DNA of 64,000 nucleotides from an uncultured Saprospiraceae bacterium (GCA_938002665.1 CALLAE010000040.1:1-64000), one strand, 5' to 3'; positions 33,127 to 64,000 are shown, numbered from the stretch's first letter. Notes: a model not told the origin generated them from the letters alone. Numbers and translations: made by a program.

Positions 33127-33244
33127 CAGTGTCGTTTGTAATATAAATAACCTATGCTCATCAAGGAGCATAGCCGTACAATGTAATTAATTTATAAAAG
33201 CTTAAAAAACTTAAGTATACCTTTAGGTCATTTCTGTCCTATAA

Positions 33245-34447
33245 ATTTCAAAGCCTATCTCAGCTATAGCCATAAAAGTAAAACCATCCGTCCATAAGCT
33301 TATAAAAAGTGGACATCCTTGGCTCTTTGAATCTAGTATCTTAAAGCAAAGTAAAGATGGAGAAAGTGGCAGTATTGCTATACTTTTCGATAATAGGCAG
33401 AACAAGTTTCTAGCTCTAGGCCTCTATGACCCAGACTCCCCTATCAGAGTCAAAATCTTATCCACCACCAATGGCACCAAACTGAACCAAGATTGGTTTG
33501 ATGAAAAATTTAAACTTTGCTTAGCTAAGAGGGCCGCACTTGTAGCAACAGATACTACTGCATACAGACTCTGCTTCGGTGAAAATGACGGGCTACCTTC
33601 CCTTATCTGTGATGTATATGCTGATACAGCCGTACTAAAATTGTATTCCAAAATTTGGTTTCCATATCTAGAAAATATCAAAGAAAGTATCCTTAAGGTT
33701 AGGAGCTGCAAAACCATAGTTCTCAGACTGGCTAGAAAAGTGGTGGAGCAGATGGAGGCAAGCAGCTATGCAGACGGACAGGTAATCAATGGAGACTTAG
33801 AATCCGAAGACCTGACTTTTAAGGAACATGGTGTCGTATTCCGTGCCAATGTCATCAAAGGACACAAGACAGGATTCTTCCTAGACCATCGTCATAACAG
33901 AGTCAAAGTACAAGAACTGGCTAAAGGAAAAACAATTCTGGATGTCTTCTCCTATGCAGGAGGCTTTGCTGTACATGCCTTAGTAGGCGGCGCAACTGCA
34001 GTCACCTGCCTAGATCAAAGTGCCCAAGCTCTAGAACTCGCCAAAGAAAATGCCACCCTCAATAACAGCACTACTCAACTCAAGACGATTAAAGGTGATG
34101 CATTTACCATACTAAATGACCTCACAAACCGGGGCAAGCGCTACGACCTCGTTATCATAGATCCACCTGCCTTTGCCAAAGCTGCAAAAGAAGTCCCCCT
34201 CGCCCTCAATCAATATCAAAGATTAGCAACACTGGGTATCAACCTCGTTACCCATGGCGGCATCCTCCTTCTTGCCTCTTGTTCTTCGAGAGTCTCAGCA
34301 GATGACTTTTTTGAAAATATAGAAATAGGCATGAGAAAATCTAAAAGGAAATTTAGACTGCTGGAAAAGACTTTTCATGATGTAGATCATCCAGTAAGTT
34401 TTCCTGAAGGGGCCTACCTTAAGAGTGGGTATTTTTTAGTGGGATAG
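33245..34447 (+). CDS. Class I SAM-dependent rRNA methyltransferase (RlmI-like, PUA + methyltransferase), non-canonical start
   Basis: The full-length reading frame (about 400 codons) encodes a PUA-like N-terminus (VKPSVHKLIKSGHPWLFES, then SIAILFDNRQNKFLALGLYDPDSPIRVKIL), a linker with FGENDGLPSLICDVYAD, and a Rossmann methyltransferase with FKEHGVVFRANVIKGHKTGFFLDHR, ILDVFSYAGGFAVHAL and the catalytic-region motif VIIDPPAFAK, ending SCSSRVSADDFF. This fits the RlmI/RlmK-like 23S rRNA m5C methyltransferases in order and length. The domains need translation from before 33278, but the open frame after the stop at 33242-33244 contains no ATG, GTG or TTG until TTG 33641, which would delete the whole PUA domain. 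The best available start is ATT 33245 (or an ATA at 33266 or 33272). Confidence 0.85.
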   Translation: MSKPISAIAIKVKPSVHKLIKSGHPWLFESSILKQSKDGESGSIAILFDNRQNKFLALGLYDPDSPIRVKILSTTNGTKLNQDWFDEKFKLCLAKRAALVATDTTAYRLCFGENDGLPSLICDVYADTAVLKLYSKIWFPYLENIKESILKVRSCKTIVLRLARKVVEQMEASSYADGQVINGDLESEDLTFKEHGVVFRANVIKGHKTGFFLDHRHNRVKVQELAKGKTILDVFSYAGGFAVHALVGGATAVTCLDQSAQALELAKENATLNNSTTQLKTIKGDAFTILNDLTNRGKRYDLVIIDPPAFAKAAKEVPLALNQYQRLATLGINLVTHGGILLLASCSSRVSADDFFENIEIGMRKSKRKFRLLEKTFHDVDHPVSFPEGAYLKSGYFLVG

Positions 34448-34608: not shown

Positions 34609-34616
34609 TACCTTTG
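34609..34616 (+). promoter_or_regulatory. -7 promoter box (TACCTTTG) of the B12 operon
   Basis: TACCTTTG is an exact TAnnTTTG element placed so that transcription would begin about 34620-34625, right where the riboswitch P1 begins. The position relative to the RNA start makes this the best promoter call in the window. Confidence 0.65.
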
Positions 34617-34624
34617 CCCCCTTA

Positions 34625-34785
34625 CTGGTGGACAACGAAGGTTATCCATAATAGGGAATTCGGTGCGAATCCGAAACAGTCCCCGCTGCTGTAAGGCTGT
34701 ATATGAAGTTCATAGATCTACAACCACTGTCATTTTATGACGGGAAGGCACTATGAACTCAGCTAAGTCAGAAGACCTGCCAGTA
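34625..34785 (+). promoter_or_regulatory. Cobalamin (AdoCbl-type) riboswitch
   Basis: The conserved core elements of the B12 riboswitch are all visible in order. They are an initial P1/P2 arm with GGTTATCC, the AATAGGGAA-type strand with the receptor GGTGCGAATCCG, CAGTCCCCGCTGCTGTAA, a variable P-arm (34700s), then CCACTG ... CGGGAAGGC and AGTCAGAAGACCTGCC. The next gene encodes a BtuB-like receptor, the classical target. It should turn the operon off when adenosylcobalamin is abundant. No intrinsic terminator is seen after it, so control of translation initiation is more likely. A GGAGGAAG sequence lies at 34809-34816. Confidence 0.95.
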
Positions 34786-34860
34786 TGAAATATTTTTTCA
34801 CAGCGCTCGGAGGAAGCAAAGTGAAATATAAAACTGAGTTACAACTTGTACTATACTGTC

Positions 34861-36735
34861 ATGATGAGACTGCTAGTCTGTATGCTATTGTCTATGCTAT
34901 TCCTCTTAGCGGAGGGACAAGTAGATACGCTATTGCAAAGGGACATAGATCTTATAACTGTGCAAGCAGATAGAACTAGCAAATCAGATTCAGTGCTAGC
35001 AATAACACCTACCACTCAGAACATCTCACAGCTGCTATCGACTAAGACTAATATCTACATTAAGTCCTATGGACTAGGTAGTCTTGCGACGCTTTCTCTG
35101 TGGGGAGGCAACGCCAGTCAGACCTTGATAGAGTGGGAAGGTTTGCCTATTTCTAATCCAATGTTGGGTCTTACAGATCTATCTCTGATCCCTATGAATA
35201 CTGGTGCAGAGCTCAGCCTAGAAAAGGGCGGTCTGTCTGCAGAGCATGGCTCAGGAGCTATAACAGGCCTGCTGCAGTTTTCACAAAATAAATTACCTGC
35301 AACTGAGCAGCTTGGGCTAACAGCGGGAGTAGGGTATGGGAGTTTTGGACAATGGAATTCTAATCTGGATATGACATACAGGAAGGGCCGATTTGCGGTG
35401 GCGCTTAGTGGCTTTAGCTCTTCTGCTGATAATGATTTTTCTTTTGAGTCTGGACAGACAGAGAAACAACAAACTAATGCTGACCTGAGCTATGCTGGCC
35501 TTACGGCATCTTCCACTATTAATATAGGAGAGCATCAGCGGATCGGCATAAACCTCTGGATACAAGAATCAGAAAAAGGTATCCCTCCTACCGCGGTACA
35601 GACTAACTCTGTGGCCCGACAAGAAGATATCACCCTTCGTTCAAAGCTCTTCTGGAAAATGGATAAAAAGAAATATAGTATCCATTCCCACTTGGCAATT
35701 TTAGATGAGCAGAATAATTATTCTGATTCCCTTAACCTCATCTTCACTAATAACAGATTCCAGAAAAAACTGCACCGTTCTCAATTCAAATACCATGAAG
35801 GCAAAGTACTTTATCGCTTGAGTTATGACCTAGATATCACCGACGGATTTTCTGATGCTTATGAAAACGAAAAACAGAATCTGACAAACTTTGCCATCTA
35901 CGCTGCGGCAGAATATTCGCTATCAGACTGGTCTATAAAAACCGGCTTACGAAAAGAATGGCGCTCCTTAGGTACACCTCCCCTTTTGCCTCTGATTAGT
36001 CTTGGCTATAACTTTAGACAAGTCTCTGCAAGACTGAAATTCTCACGAGAATATAGAGCTCCCACTTTGAATGAACTTTTCTGGGTACCGGGTGGCAACC
36101 TTGATCTCCTACCAGAAATGGGATGGAATCAAGAACTGCTGTTGTCTTCCAAGAATGTGTTCAAGGCAGGAATAGACTTAGAAACAAATTTCTTTCATAG
36201 AAAAATAGATAACTGGATTCTGTGGGCACCCTTGGACAATCAGTTACTTTGGTCTCCTTACAATCTAGGAGCAGTAAGGAGCTACGGTATAGATCTAGAA
36301 AGTTCCAAGGAACACCTCATCGGTACAGTCCTAAGCAGATGGGCAGTTGGCTATAATTACAACCGTTCAGAAAACTTGGTAGAACTTGCAGTACCAGAGA
36401 TAGCAGCAGGGGATCAGCTCATCTATACACCTAAGACAAAAGTTTATGTGAGTCACTCATCTAATTACAAAGGCACCAGCCTAGATATCAATGCCAATTA
36501 CACCAGTGCTGTTTCTGGAATCAATGAGGACCTCTCCAGCTACTGGCTACTCTCAGCAAGCCTGTCTTGGGAACTGCACCTGGGGAAGCTAAAAAATACA
36601 GTTTCACTGAACATAGAAAACCTAACAAATTCAAATTATAGAGTCATAGAAAGAAGGCCTATGCCAGGCAGATATTATCAGCTAAACTGGCGCATAAATT
36701 TCAATACATTAAATCAAACAAATAACAAACAATAA
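34861..36735 (+). CDS. btuB: BtuB-like TonB-dependent cobalamin receptor
   Basis: From ATG 34861 the protein has 624 residues with a signal peptide (about 1-20, ending LLAEGQ) and a TonB-box-like DLITVQADR. The plug domain (about 40-150) contains IYIKSYGLGSLATLSLWGGNASQTLIEWEGLPISNP and a GLSAEHGSGAITG end. The 22-strand barrel has TonB-receptor hallmarks such as EYRAPTLNELFWVPGGNLDLLPEMGWNQE and the final strand ENLTNSNYRVIERRPMPGRYYQLNWR. It lies 75 bases after a cobalamin riboswitch, so it most likely imports B12 or related corrinoids, powered by TonB. No N-terminal carboxypeptidase-like domain precedes it, as expected for BtuB. An in-frame TTG at 34846 is an alternative start. Confidence 0.9.
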   Translation: MMRLLVCMLLSMLFLLAEGQVDTLLQRDIDLITVQADRTSKSDSVLAITPTTQNISQLLSTKTNIYIKSYGLGSLATLSLWGGNASQTLIEWEGLPISNPMLGLTDLSLIPMNTGAELSLEKGGLSAEHGSGAITGLLQFSQNKLPATEQLGLTAGVGYGSFGQWNSNLDMTYRKGRFAVALSGFSSSADNDFSFESGQTEKQQTNADLSYAGLTASSTINIGEHQRIGINLWIQESEKGIPPTAVQTNSVARQEDITLRSKLFWKMDKKKYSIHSHLAILDEQNNYSDSLNLIFTNNRFQKKLHRSQFKYHEGKVLYRLSYDLDITDGFSDAYENEKQNLTNFAIYAAAEYSLSDWSIKTGLRKEWRSLGTPPLLPLISLGYNFRQVSARLKFSREYRAPTLNELFWVPGGNLDLLPEMGWNQELLLSSKNVFKAGIDLETNFFHRKIDNWILWAPLDNQLLWSPYNLGAVRSYGIDLESSKEHLIGTVLSRWAVGYNYNRSENLVELAVPEIAAGDQLIYTPKTKVYVSHSSNYKGTSLDINANYTSAVSGINEDLSSYWLLSASLSWELHLGKLKNTVSLNIENLTNSNYRVIERRPMPGRYYQLNWRINFNTLNQTNNKQ

Positions 36736-36739
36736 AAAA

Positions 36740-37708
36740 ATGAAACTAAGATTTACAATTTTAATTCTTGCGATAGTACAATTTTGTAGTGCACAGACAA
36801 CTTCAGATTTTGAAGGATTTACACTTGCACCAGATAGCTTTTTAAATGGCTCTGATGGGTCTATGGGATTTTCGGATGGCAACATTAGATTATTGAATGA
36901 TTACAATTCTGAGTGGGATTCGTGGTCTGGCTGGGCGATCTCTTCATTTACAGATACCACTACGCCTGGTTTTACTAATCAGTATAGTTCTATCAGTGGT
37001 ATAGGCGCTGAGGGCTCTGCTGCTTATGCTGTGTCATTTGTATCAGGAGTGAGTCTTTTGCATACTACAGATGCAGCTGAAGGGGGTACAGTGGAAGGCT
37101 TCTATATAAATAATGCGACGTATGCTTACCTGAGCATGCGGGATGGGGATGCTTTTGCAAAGAAATTTGGTGGTGAAGATGGTAACGATCCAGATTTCTT
37201 TTACCTCAGCATTAAGGAATATGGCGATAGAAATGTCAATAATGATAGCCTCATAGTATATCTAGCTGATTATCGTTCTGATGATAACACGGAGGATTAT
37301 ATTATAGACGAGTGGACTTATGTGGATCTTACTCGATTTGAAAACGTAGATACCTTATCCTTCCAGTTGTATTCCAGTGACAATGGCATGTTTGGGATGA
37401 ATACACCAGCCTACTTTTGTATAGATAATTTTACAACTACTGATATGAAACTAACAGCAGTGGAAGACGTTGAAAAAAGCAAAGTTACTGTATATCCCAA
37501 TCCTACTTCTGGACTGATACATTGTACTGGTACAGGCTATCTCTCCTCTTATGCCCTTTATGACATTTATGGTAATCTATTAGAAACTGCACAGATAGAA
37601 AGCAATGATTTCGAGCTGGATATTAGTGCTAGACCTTCAGGCAACTACTTGCTCATCACCCATGATAAGGATGGTAGGCCGTCGAGTCAAAGGATAATCA
37701 GACTATAA
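36740..37708 (+). CDS. DUF4465 protein with T9SS sorting domain, candidate secreted cobalamin binder
   Basis: The 322-residue protein starts four bases after the receptor's stop, so it is in the same riboswitch-controlled operon. It has a signal peptide (1-19, ending CSAQ) and a DUF4465-type beta-sandwich domain (about 22-235) rich in aromatic and Asp residues: DFEGFTLAPDSFLNG, WSGWAISSFTD, GFYINNATYAYLSMRDGD, and IDEWTYVDLTRFENVDTL followed by a FCIDNFTTTD end. A type A T9SS sorting domain (about 245-322) opens VTVYPNPTSGLIHCTG and ends PSGNYLLITHDKDGRPSSQRIIRL. DUF4465 proteins recur in Bacteroidota B12 loci; I recall, without being certain, that the BtuH family of B12 lipoproteins belongs here. 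The T9SS tail in place of a lipoprotein anchor suggests a surface-attached or released corrinoid binder. The substrate is inference. Confidence 0.85.
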   Translation: MKLRFTILILAIVQFCSAQTTSDFEGFTLAPDSFLNGSDGSMGFSDGNIRLLNDYNSEWDSWSGWAISSFTDTTTPGFTNQYSSISGIGAEGSAAYAVSFVSGVSLLHTTDAAEGGTVEGFYINNATYAYLSMRDGDAFAKKFGGEDGNDPDFFYLSIKEYGDRNVNNDSLIVYLADYRSDDNTEDYIIDEWTYVDLTRFENVDTLSFQLYSSDNGMFGMNTPAYFCIDNFTTTDMKLTAVEDVEKSKVTVYPNPTSGLIHCTGTGYLSSYALYDIYGNLLETAQIESNDFELDISARPSGNYLLITHDKDGRPSSQRIIRL

Positions 37709-52023: not shown

Positions 52024-53379
52024 ATGCGCAACACAATTTCAGTTTGCTTTCTTCTGTGTCTTTTTAATTGCCTAATTATTCATGCTCAGCAGGATTGTGA
52101 GGATGGGATGATATCTGAGGTGTATAACATCACTTTGTGTCCTGGAGAGTCTTACCTAGGATATGATTCTAGTGGTGTCTACTATGACACTATAGCTATT
52201 AGTCCTCATTGTGATTTGATCAGAACTTACTTTATTTCTGTATTCTCCTTAGCCCCGAAAACAATAGTAGGTATTGGCAATAACTTTTGTGATGAGATAA
52301 CTCAAGACTCATTATTTCTGATTGCACCCTTCGATGCCGTAGGTGGATGCAACTATATACCTGAGATAAATTTGCCAAATTTTGATGGAATCCTTCTCAT
52401 AGACACCATTTGCTTTGCTCAAAGTGATATGACTTTAGAGCCAGGTTTTTATTTTGATCTTGATACTACCAATCCTAATTGTGATTCTTCTACTTTACTT
52501 ATTGTGGTTCCAGTTCCTGAGAATACTTCAAGTTCCTATTCTATCTGTGCATTAGAAGATTTCCCAATGGCACTAATAGACACTACTGGGCAAGAAATAA
52601 CTGACGTCGGCTTGTATGCTGTAGAAAGGACTACAGCGGCTGGCTGCTCTTATATAGAAGAAGTGGAAATTACATCAGCAATTGTTCCAGCAGATATAAC
52701 TTTAGACACCACCATCTGCTCAGGCGCTTATCTATATGGACTCACTGAGACTGGGACTTATACAGTGGAAAGAAAAGATATCAATGGATGCAGCTACGAT
52801 ATTTATCTAAATCTCACAGTACGACCTCCAGTACCAGATATTAGAACTAATGTGACCATTTGTGAAAGTGACTTTGATGGTACCATACCTGAGCCCATAG
52901 AAAGGATAAACTCTAATGGCTGTCCATACTTAGAAATTTTAGATCTAACAATTCTAATGGAATCTAACTCAATAATCACGGCCGAGATCTGCGATGGTGA
53001 AGAATTCAATGGTTATACCGTAACAGGCAACTACACAGATATTCTGATAGCTGCAAATGGCTGCGATAGTATCATCACAACAGAGCTAACCGTGATCCCC
53101 CTTGCTGATTGTGATACTGCAGTAAAAGATACAGAACTTCCATATGAGTTCTCACTTACCCCTAACCCCTCTCATGGTACAATAAGAATAAGCAGCGTAT
53201 CGCCAATAAACAATTCTGGCTACAAAATAGTAGACATGCTAGGAAAGACAGTAATGAGTGCACTCCATCTACCTGACAATAACACCATTGATATTTCCAG
53301 CCTATCGAATGGCACTTATCTCTTTACATTAAAAAGAGCGGGAGCCAGAGATCGTGCAAAAATGATAGTCAAATTGTAA
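52024..53379 (+). CDS. T9SS-secreted Cys-patterned repeat protein
   Basis: The 451-residue protein has a signal peptide (1-22, ending IIHAQ). About five or six ~60-70-residue beta-modules follow. Each has a Cys-based pattern: VGIGNNFCDEI ... GGCNYIPEINL, ITLDTTICSGAYLYGLTETGTYTVERKDINGCSYDIYLNLTV and ITAEICDGEEFNGYTVTGNYTDILIAANGCDSIITTELTV. A type A T9SS sorting domain (about 375-451) follows, with FSLTPNPSHGTIRISSV and the end SNGTYLFTLKRAGARDRAKMIVK. These modules are common in large Bacteroidota adhesins; here only a short array remains. It is probably a surface-exposed adhesive or structural protein. It is monocistronic, with a strong terminator. Confidence 0.87.
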   Translation: MRNTISVCFLLCLFNCLIIHAQQDCEDGMISEVYNITLCPGESYLGYDSSGVYYDTIAISPHCDLIRTYFISVFSLAPKTIVGIGNNFCDEITQDSLFLIAPFDAVGGCNYIPEINLPNFDGILLIDTICFAQSDMTLEPGFYFDLDTTNPNCDSSTLLIVVPVPENTSSSYSICALEDFPMALIDTTGQEITDVGLYAVERTTAAGCSYIEEVEITSAIVPADITLDTTICSGAYLYGLTETGTYTVERKDINGCSYDIYLNLTVRPPVPDIRTNVTICESDFDGTIPEPIERINSNGCPYLEILDLTILMESNSIITAEICDGEEFNGYTVTGNYTDILIAANGCDSIITTELTVIPLADCDTAVKDTELPYEFSLTPNPSHGTIRISSVSPINNSGYKIVDMLGKTVMSALHLPDNNTIDISSLSNGTYLFTLKRAGARDRAKMIVKL

Positions 53380-63048: not shown

Positions 63049-64000
63049 CTATCGACTCACAACAAATTTCTGCACCTCATCTCCTACACTTATAAAATAC
63101 AATCCAGAAGGTAGTAGGCTCACCCTAATGCTCTGAACCTCACCCTCTACCTTACCTTGTTGTACCAGCTTCCCAGTTGCGCTGTGGATAGTATATTCTA
63201 AATCTGAATACTCTTTATTCAAAACAACGTAGATGTAATCTGTGGTAGGGTTAGGAAATATTAGCAGACTAGAGTCTACATTTGGATCTGCAACTCCTGA
63301 ACTAGGGATTTCGGACACCATTGTATTCAGAGTCGTATTAGTCACAATAGCTGGGTTGTTATCAAAATAGATATGTGCTGTATTTTCTATAGCCGTAAAT
63401 TCTTCCAAGTCAGAACGTGGACTTATCGTGTAACTCAGAAAGCCATGACTTTCAGGTTCGTTATGCACTGAGTCAGGCAAGAAGATATTATCAAAAACAA
63501 ACTGAACAGCATTCTCCTCCAATTTTATCTCCGTCACACGATGGCTCGCTCCAATAAAATGAAAAGTACTGAGATCAAGATTAGAATCTAGGGTATCAGT
63601 TATAGAAACATCCTGCGCAAAATAGTTGCCTGTATTCTGAAAGCGTATGGTATACTGCAGCGTCTCTTCTTCAAACAAAGTGTAGTTCTCGTCTTGCACT
63701 CCAGCAGGATGCACTTGCTTGTCATTTGGGTCATAGGCACATAGGAATTCTCTCTCGTAAGATTGTGTCTCACCGACATAGCTCTCACCCTGAGCATTGG
63801 TATATTCTGAATTTAAAGCATACTCATAAAAATTTCCAAGCGGAATCTCATCTATGCCAGGCGCTAGATATTCAAGTTCTATTTCTATCCTTTGTCCAGG
63901 CAACATATTTTCTAGTTCAAAGCTGAGCTCCGTCCCGGTCATAGAAGCAAAGGGCCAAGAGGCACTGATAAAATCTCCAAAGCCCGTATAATATAGAACC
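63049..64000 (-). CDS. T9SS-secreted protein with DUF11-like repeat, 5'-truncated by window edge
   Basis: The reading frame is open to the right edge of the window, so only the C-terminal ~316 residues are seen. There is a DUF11/conserved-repeat type beta-domain (about 95-205 of the visible part). It contains CAYDPNDKQVHPAG, the usual transition sequence before an ETLQYTIRFQNTGNYFAQDVSITDTLDSNLDLSTF module, and ends IENTAHIYFDNNPAIVTNTTLNTM. A type A T9SS sorting domain follows, with LLIFPNPTTDYIYVVL and the end LPSGLYFISVGDEVQKFVVSR. It is probably a long surface or secreted protein; homologues with this ending are usually over 1000 residues. Confidence 0.88.
   Translation of the reverse strand, partial: VLYYTGFGDFISASWPFASMTGTELSFELENMLPGQRIEIELEYLAPGIDEIPLGNFYEYALNSEYTNAQGESYVGETQSYEREFLCAYDPNDKQVHPAGVQDENYTLFEEETLQYTIRFQNTGNYFAQDVSITDTLDSNLDLSTFHFIGASHRVTEIKLEENAVQFVFDNIFLPDSVHNEPESHGFLSYTISPRSDLEEFTAIENTAHIYFDNNPAIVTNTTLNTMVSEIPSSGVADPNVDSSLLIFPNPTTDYIYVVLNKEYSDLEYTIHSATGKLVQQGKVEGEVQSIRVSLLPSGLYFISVGDEVQKFVVSR

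What the first reader, a model, noticed from the sequence alone, without database searches (positions are those of the whole stretch)
34609..37708. Riboswitch-controlled B12 operon in which the second protein is a T9SS-secreted DUF4465, candidate cobalophore
Seen in sequence: a -7 box, a complete cobalamin riboswitch, a BtuB-like receptor and, four bases later, a DUF4465 protein with a signal peptide and a type A T9SS sorting domain. Known: cobalamin riboswitches control corrinoid uptake, and gut Bacteroidota use surface lipoproteins to grab B12 for the receptor. Inference: here the binder is exported by T9SS instead of anchored as a lipoprotein, so it could be surface-glycolipid-attached or released as a diffusible corrinoid scavenger. 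I know of no described T9SS-delivered B12 binder.
Basis: partly seen in the sequence, partly recalled or inferred. Interest (0 to 1): 0.75.

Follow-up and report, generated by a model that had tools for sequence, protein, structure and literature searches.

The report
T9SS-secreted vitamin B12 catcher operon
An environmental bacterium carries, under a vitamin B12-sensing RNA switch, an outer-membrane B12 importer together with a B12-grabbing protein that is sent to the cell surface by the type 9 secretion system instead of being lipid-anchored as in gut bacteria; the grabbing domain itself is already known to bind B12.

Summary
DUF4465 is no longer of unknown function: BtuJ1, BtuJ2 and six further members bind B12 (PMC12751083, PMC13398666). 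The window protein has the BtuJ1 fold (Z 26), the four shared B12-contacting residues, and a separate CTD with the T9SS fold (Z about 10). The class 'DUF4465 plus C-terminal sorting domain' was already counted in 2025 (229 of 824 sequences), so it is not unheard of. New here: in Saprospiraceae this is the standard arrangement. A riboswitch lies just upstream in 74 of 79 testable genomes, DUF4465 follows BtuB in 56 of 61 loci, and all 55 proteins examined carry the sorting domain, none with a clear lipobox. It sits where other Saprospiraceae have the lipoprotein BtuG. Best explanation: a riboswitch-controlled, T9SS-displayed corrinoid-capture protein feeding its own BtuB. Whether it stays attached or is released (the 'cobalophore' idea) cannot be told from sequence. 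A new variant of a known kind, moderately interesting, with clear tests.

The parts
34609..34616 (+). -7 box TACCTTTG (Bacteroidota promoter element TAnnTTTG)
   Evidence: Sequence; same motif at the same place in 47 of 121 related riboswitch loci, 0 at control positions
34609..34798 (+). Cobalamin riboswitch aptamer (RF00174)
   Evidence: 109.6 bits, model 1-189/189; the only RF00174 match in the genome
34861..36735 (+). BtuB-like TonB-dependent outer-membrane corrinoid receptor (624 aa from ATG 34861)
   Evidence: Plug, TIGR01779 best but below cut-off, only BtuB structures matched
36740..37708 (+). DUF4465 protein with T9SS type A sorting domain (322 aa), BtuJ-like
   Evidence: PF14717 178 bits, PF18962 31 bits, TIGR04183 27 bits; model pLDDT 91.7
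36740..36793 (+). Sec signal peptide (MKLRFTILILAIVQFCSA), no lipobox
   Evidence: By eye; predicted helix 2-15; same pattern in relatives
36794..37447 (+). DUF4465 corrinoid-binding jelly roll (residues 19-236)
   Evidence: Z 26 to BtuJ1-B12 (9qpm, 9fct) and to D5EK51-B12 (9hmu)
37121..37123 (+). Tyr128, equivalent of B12-contacting Tyr146 of BtuJ1 (DE helix)
   Evidence: Alignment; Y in 48 of 55 homologues; contact list in PMC12751083
37400..37414 (+). HI-loop motif NTPAY (residues 221-225), equivalents of Asn241, Thr242, Tyr245 of BtuJ1
   Evidence: N, T and P in 55 of 55, Y in 48 of 55 homologues
37478..37705 (+). T9SS type A C-terminal sorting domain (residues 247-322)
   Evidence: Z 10-11 to CTDs of mirolase, NucA and RemA (8qb1, 8glk, 8gl6); 55 of 55 relatives match TIGR04183 and PF18962

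Best explanation
A corrinoid-scavenging operon of a Saprospiraceae bacterium that uses B12 but probably does not make it. When cobalamin is scarce the riboswitch lets the operon be expressed (inferred from the riboswitch class). BtuB goes into the outer membrane. The DUF4465 protein crosses the inner membrane by Sec and the outer membrane by T9SS (SprA/PorV route, sorting domain probably removed by PorU). Its jelly-roll domain captures corrinoid outside the cell and passes it to BtuB, which imports it with TonB energy. It holds the operon place that the lipoprotein BtuG has in other Saprospiraceae. Shown by computation: the parts, the fold, the conserved binding residues, the sorting domain, a T9SS translocon in the genome, the operon linkage. 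Inferred: B12 binding by this very protein, actual secretion, hand-over to BtuB. Open: attached or released (I lean to attached, about 60 to 40).
For: Riboswitch complete and directly upstream. DUF4465 members bind B12 (PMC13398666, PMC12751083). Model matches BtuJ1-B12 at Z 26 and keeps Y128, N221, T222, Y225. T9SS CTD by sequence and fold, in 55 of 55 relatives. SprA and at least 150 CTD matches in the genome. Riboswitch upstream on the same strand in 74 of 79 genomes; BtuB directly before DUF4465 in 56 of 61 loci, gap under 110 bp in 51 of 53. MetH and methylmalonyl-CoA mutase present, CbiC absent.
Against: No binding, secretion or expression data for this protein or any close relative. The receptor is far below the TIGR01779 cut-off. 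T9SS sorting domains are very common here, so one more is not by itself telling. Inner-membrane BtuCDF is not in the operon and only one weak FecCD permease was found. The genome is 87.5% complete, so absences are weak.
Confidence: 0.85

Rival explanations
1. Cobalophore: PorU frees the protein, it diffuses as a soluble corrinoid scavenger and is recaptured by BtuB, much as a haemophore works.
For: A sizeable subset of T9SS cargo is released into the medium (PMC10202324); there is no lipobox.
Against: Release loses the vitamin to neighbours. The gene sits directly behind BtuB, in the place of the membrane-bound BtuG. Attachment to surface glycolipid is the other common fate of such cargo.
Confidence: 0.3
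2. BtuG replacement: the T9SS-delivered DUF4465 docks on BtuB as a lid and is needed for uptake, as BtuG is in Bacteroides.
For: Same operon place as BtuG; BtuG follows in only 2 of 56 BtuB-DUF4465 loci; partner type clusters on the BtuB tree (7 changes against a shuffled mean of 32).
Against: Clustering is expected from joint inheritance alone. The sampled loci without DUF4465 were chosen for lacking it. B. theta BtuJ works beside BtuG, not instead of it (PMC12751083). About half of the BtuB loci without DUF4465 have no partner at all, so BtuB need not have a lid.
Confidence: 0.3
3. The DUF4465 domain here binds another ligand (for example a glycan) and the link to the riboswitch is incidental.
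For: No binding data for this protein; the jelly roll also resembles carbohydrate-binding modules at Z about 8.5.
Against: Eight diverse members of the family bind B12 (PMC13398666); the binding residues are kept; the domain is 55% identical to the window protein on average against 22% for the CTD; the riboswitch link holds in 74 of 79 genomes and five loci have DUF4465 straight after the riboswitch without BtuB.
Confidence: 0.05

Closest known systems
BtuJ1 / BtuJ2 (DUF4465, IPR027828) of Bacteroides thetaiotaomicron; PDB 9fct, 9qpm, 9i2l
   Same: Same Pfam family, fold (Z 26 and 22) and B12-contacting residues; in cobalamin-riboswitch operons with BtuB
   Different: BtuJ are lipoproteins found on cells and vesicles; the window protein has no lipobox and carries a T9SS sorting domain
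D5EK51 of Coraliomargarita akajimensis and the other DUF4465 proteins tested in PMC13398666 (PDB 9hmu)
   Same: Closest solved relative by sequence (E 7e-27); binds B12
   Different: Other phyla or families; no T9SS domain is mentioned in that paper
DUF4465 sequences with IPR026444 counted in PMC12751083 (229 of 824)
   Same: Apparently the same domain architecture; never together with a lipoprotein signal
   Different: Only counted there; no operon, riboswitch or secretion route described
BtuG (DUF5074 propeller lipoprotein lid of BtuB; PDB 8p97, 8p98, 8bmx)
   Same: Same operon place after BtuB under a cobalamin riboswitch; external corrinoid capture
   Different: Unrelated fold, lipid-anchored; found in place of DUF4465 in other Saprospiraceae
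HBP35 of Porphyromonas gingivalis (T9SS-exported haem binder; from my own knowledge)
   Same: A cofactor-binding protein taken to the surface by a T9SS sorting domain
   Different: Haem, unrelated binding domain; not examined here

Membership tests
DUF4465 (PF14717) B12-binding family | Pfam PF14717 over its cut-off | tested here: met
   178.2 against 25 bits
DUF4465 (PF14717) B12-binding family | BtuJ-type augmented jelly-roll fold | tested here: met
   Z 26, 209-211 residues aligned at 2.3 A to BtuJ1
DUF4465 (PF14717) B12-binding family | Tyr in DE helix and N-T-P-x-Y in HI loop | tested here: met
   Y128, N221, T222, P223, Y225
DUF4465 (PF14717) B12-binding family | Binds cobalamin in vitro | not testable with these tools
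   Bench work needed
Surface lipoprotein (BtuG/BtuH/BtuJ type) | Lipobox cysteine after the signal peptide | tested here: not met
   None in the window protein; no clear lipobox in 61 riboswitch-linked DUF4465 proteins, one doubtful regex hit inside a hydrophobic stretch
T9SS type A cargo | C-terminal TIGR04183 / PF18962 domain | tested here: met
   26.9 against 23 and 31.2 against 27 bits; CTD fold Z 10-11
T9SS type A cargo | T9SS translocon in the genome | tested here: met
   SprA 1544.6 bits; PorV and PorU were not searched
T9SS type A cargo | T9SS-dependent secretion | not testable with these tools
   Bench work needed
BtuB (TIGR01779 equivalog) | TIGR01779 over its cut-off | tested here: not met
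   57 against 599.7 bits
BtuB-type corrinoid receptor in the wider sense | Nearest solved structures are BtuB | tested here: met
   Four PDB matches, all BtuB entries of Bacteroides (that 8p97_A and 8bmx_C are BtuB follows from their partner chains)
Cobalamin riboswitch (RF00174) | Covariance-model match over gathering score | tested here: met
   109.6 against 31.5 bits
BtuG | DUF5074 propeller | tested here: not met
   Only DUF4465 and the sorting domain match
Cobalophore (released corrinoid scavenger) | Free in the medium and used after re-uptake | not testable with these tools
   T9SS cargo may be anchored or released (PMC10202324); sequence does not decide

The most novel reading that the evidence does not exclude
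In Saprospiraceae a T9SS-delivered jelly-roll corrinoid binder functionally replaces the BtuG lipoprotein lid of BtuB, and in one genus a BtuG-like propeller has itself gained a T9SS sorting domain in place of its lipid anchor: two unrelated B12-capture scaffolds moved from lipid anchoring to T9SS display.
Probability: 0.3. Interest if true: 0.65.

Novelty: new variant of a known kind. Interest (0 to 1): 0.45.

Why it matters
Corrinoid capture at the cell surface has been worked out in gut Bacteroides with lipoproteins. Here a largely environmental family uses another export route for the same job as its standard design. That would extend T9SS cargo to vitamin capture and offers a direct test of whether B12-capture proteins are private (attached) or public (released). 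The three BtuB arrangements in this one family (DUF4465 on T9SS, BtuG lipoprotein, no partner) give a natural comparison of how much the partner matters.

Tried and rejected
Chance co-location: rejected, 74 of 79 genomes linked. Sorting domain as a false hit: rejected, 55 of 55 relatives and a fold match. Expression platform: a fold of 34780-34880 is no better than shuffles (z 0.17) and no + strand terminator was found, so control by transcription or by translation stays open. The model of the T9SS propeller was too poor to search (pLDDT 50.1 from two sequences). Literature searches joining T9SS with cobalamin binding gave no paper that describes such a protein (open-access papers only). L106 was first searched in the PDB with a reference 12 codons out of register; only the Pfam run with the right reference is used.

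Full report
What is there. The window lies in a 3.76-Mb draft genome (180 contigs, 87.5% complete) of a Saprospiraceae bacterium (family inferred from the named homologues). It holds a complete cobalamin riboswitch at 34609-34798 (109.6 bits), a BtuB-like TonB-dependent receptor at 34861-36735, and after a four-base gap a 322-residue protein at 36740-37708 with a signal peptide, a DUF4465 domain (178 bits) and a T9SS type A sorting domain (31.2 and 26.9 bits, both over the curated cut-offs). The next gene on that strand starts 400 bases further on and is an ECF sigma factor. The -7 box at 34609-34616 is credible: TAnnTTTG stands at position 1 or 2 of the riboswitch match in 45 of 121 related loci (47 within the first 30 nt) and at neither of two control positions.

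What DUF4465 does. It is no longer an unknown. BtuJ1 and BtuJ2 of B. theta are DUF4465 lipoproteins that bind cyanocobalamin (BtuJ1 Kd about 0.15 nM) and deliver it on vesicles (PMC12751083). Eight diverse members bind B12 (PMC13398666). An AlphaFold2 model of the window protein built with 54 homologues (pLDDT 91.7) matches BtuJ1-B12 and D5EK51-B12 at Z 26. The four conserved residues that hydrogen-bond B12 in BtuJ1 and BtuJ2 (Y146, N241, T242, Y245 in BtuJ1) are Y128, N221, T222 and Y225 here. N221, T222 and P223 are invariant in all 55 proteins.

How it is exported. Residues 247-322 form a separate domain that matches T9SS sorting domains solved in the SprA-PorV translocon (8glk, 8gl6, 8glj) and the sorting domain of mirolase at Z about 10. 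All 55 proteins match PF18962 and TIGR04183 and none has a clear lipobox. The genome has SprA and at least 150 sorting-domain matches, so T9SS is an ordinary route in this organism, which lowers the surprise of any single case. But in the same kind of riboswitch locus the BtuG-like proteins are lipoproteins: the N-terminal cysteine is invariant in 25 of 25, 24 of 25 match DUF5074, and their profile finds solved BtuG chains at E 3e-84. So the export route goes with the protein family and is not random.

How general it is. DUF4465 is present in 126 of 298 Saprospiraceae genomes sampled and a cobalamin riboswitch in 223. The riboswitch table was cut at 150 rows; among the 79 DUF4465 genomes whose riboswitch was listed, 74 have it upstream on the same strand at 0.3-2.9 kb, and in the other five the two lie on different contigs. 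In 61 loci with DUF4465 (window included), 56 read riboswitch, BtuB, DUF4465 and five read riboswitch, DUF4465. The gap between BtuB stop and DUF4465 start is under 110 bp in 51 of 53. In 60 loci from genomes without a DUF4465 match, 15 have BtuB then BtuG, nine BtuG alone, 30 BtuB alone and six neither. Partner type clusters strongly on the BtuB tree (7 changes against a shuffled mean of 32); this is expected if operons are inherited whole, so it supports stable pairing and does not prove contact. The comparison loci were chosen for lacking DUF4465, so mutual exclusion is only partly tested, and two loci hold both (L192, L194).

Need for B12. The genome has B12-dependent methionine synthase and methylmalonyl-CoA mutase, no CbiC and one riboswitch: a likely corrinoid user that scavenges, with the caveat of incompleteness. 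Only one weak FecCD-type permease was found, so the inner-membrane step is open.

Mechanism. Most likely: low cobalamin; riboswitch permissive; BtuB and DUF4465 protein made together; DUF4465 protein exported by Sec and then T9SS; corrinoid captured outside; hand-over to BtuB; TonB-driven import. Shown by computation: parts, fold, residues, linkage, sorting domain. Inferred: binding, secretion, hand-over. Attached or released cannot be told, since T9SS cargo may be either (PMC10202324). I lean to attached because the gene takes the place of BtuG beside BtuB, but this is weak.

Novelty. The domain's function and the existence of the sorting-domain class (229 of 824 sequences) are both published; that IPR026444 is the T9SS sorting-domain entry is my own knowledge. 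I found no paper that names the T9SS route for it, describes this operon, or tests such a protein (open-access papers only). So it is a new variant of a known kind: a BtuB plus external corrinoid-binder system with the binder on the T9SS route. An unexpected lead is a possible second case. In one genus (L106, L140, L141) a cobalamin riboswitch precedes a propeller-like protein that matches the BtuG profile along its length, though weakly (23 and 15 bits with filters off; hhalign probability 96%), and carries a T9SS sorting domain. Its structure could not be predicted well, so this stays a lead.

Noticed in passing
L106:435-1733, L140:511-1821 and L141 (one genus, g22): Cobalamin riboswitch followed by a propeller-like protein that weakly matches the BtuG profile along its length and carries a T9SS sorting domain, without a lipobox: possibly a second B12-capture scaffold moved to T9SS.
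   Followed up: partly
L130, L181, L183, L206, L208: Proteins of about 544-554 aa with two DUF4465 domains in tandem and one T9SS sorting domain, under cobalamin riboswitches.
   Followed up: no
L192 and L194: Riboswitch, BtuB, DUF4465 with sorting domain, and further down a BtuG lipoprotein: both capture proteins in one locus.
   Followed up: no
L091, L104, L107, L109, L138, L147, L158, L159, L174: Cobalamin riboswitch directly before a BtuG-like lipoprotein with no BtuB next to it.
   Followed up: no
L079, L083: Planctomycetota DUF4465 relatives whose C-termini look like PEP-CTERM anchors by eye, a third way of export.
   Followed up: no
window about 33230-34447, + strand: The upstream 23S rRNA methyltransferase-like gene has an open frame and sensible protein upstream of TTG 33641, but no ATG, GTG or TTG start there: unusual start codon, sequence error or broken start.
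   Followed up: partly
L150: Cobalamin riboswitch directly before genes that look by eye like class I ribonucleotide reductase small and large subunits.
   Followed up: no
window 52024-53379 (+) and 63049-63942 (-): Two more proteins with T9SS sorting domains in the window, one with no other known domain and one with DUF7619.
   Followed up: no
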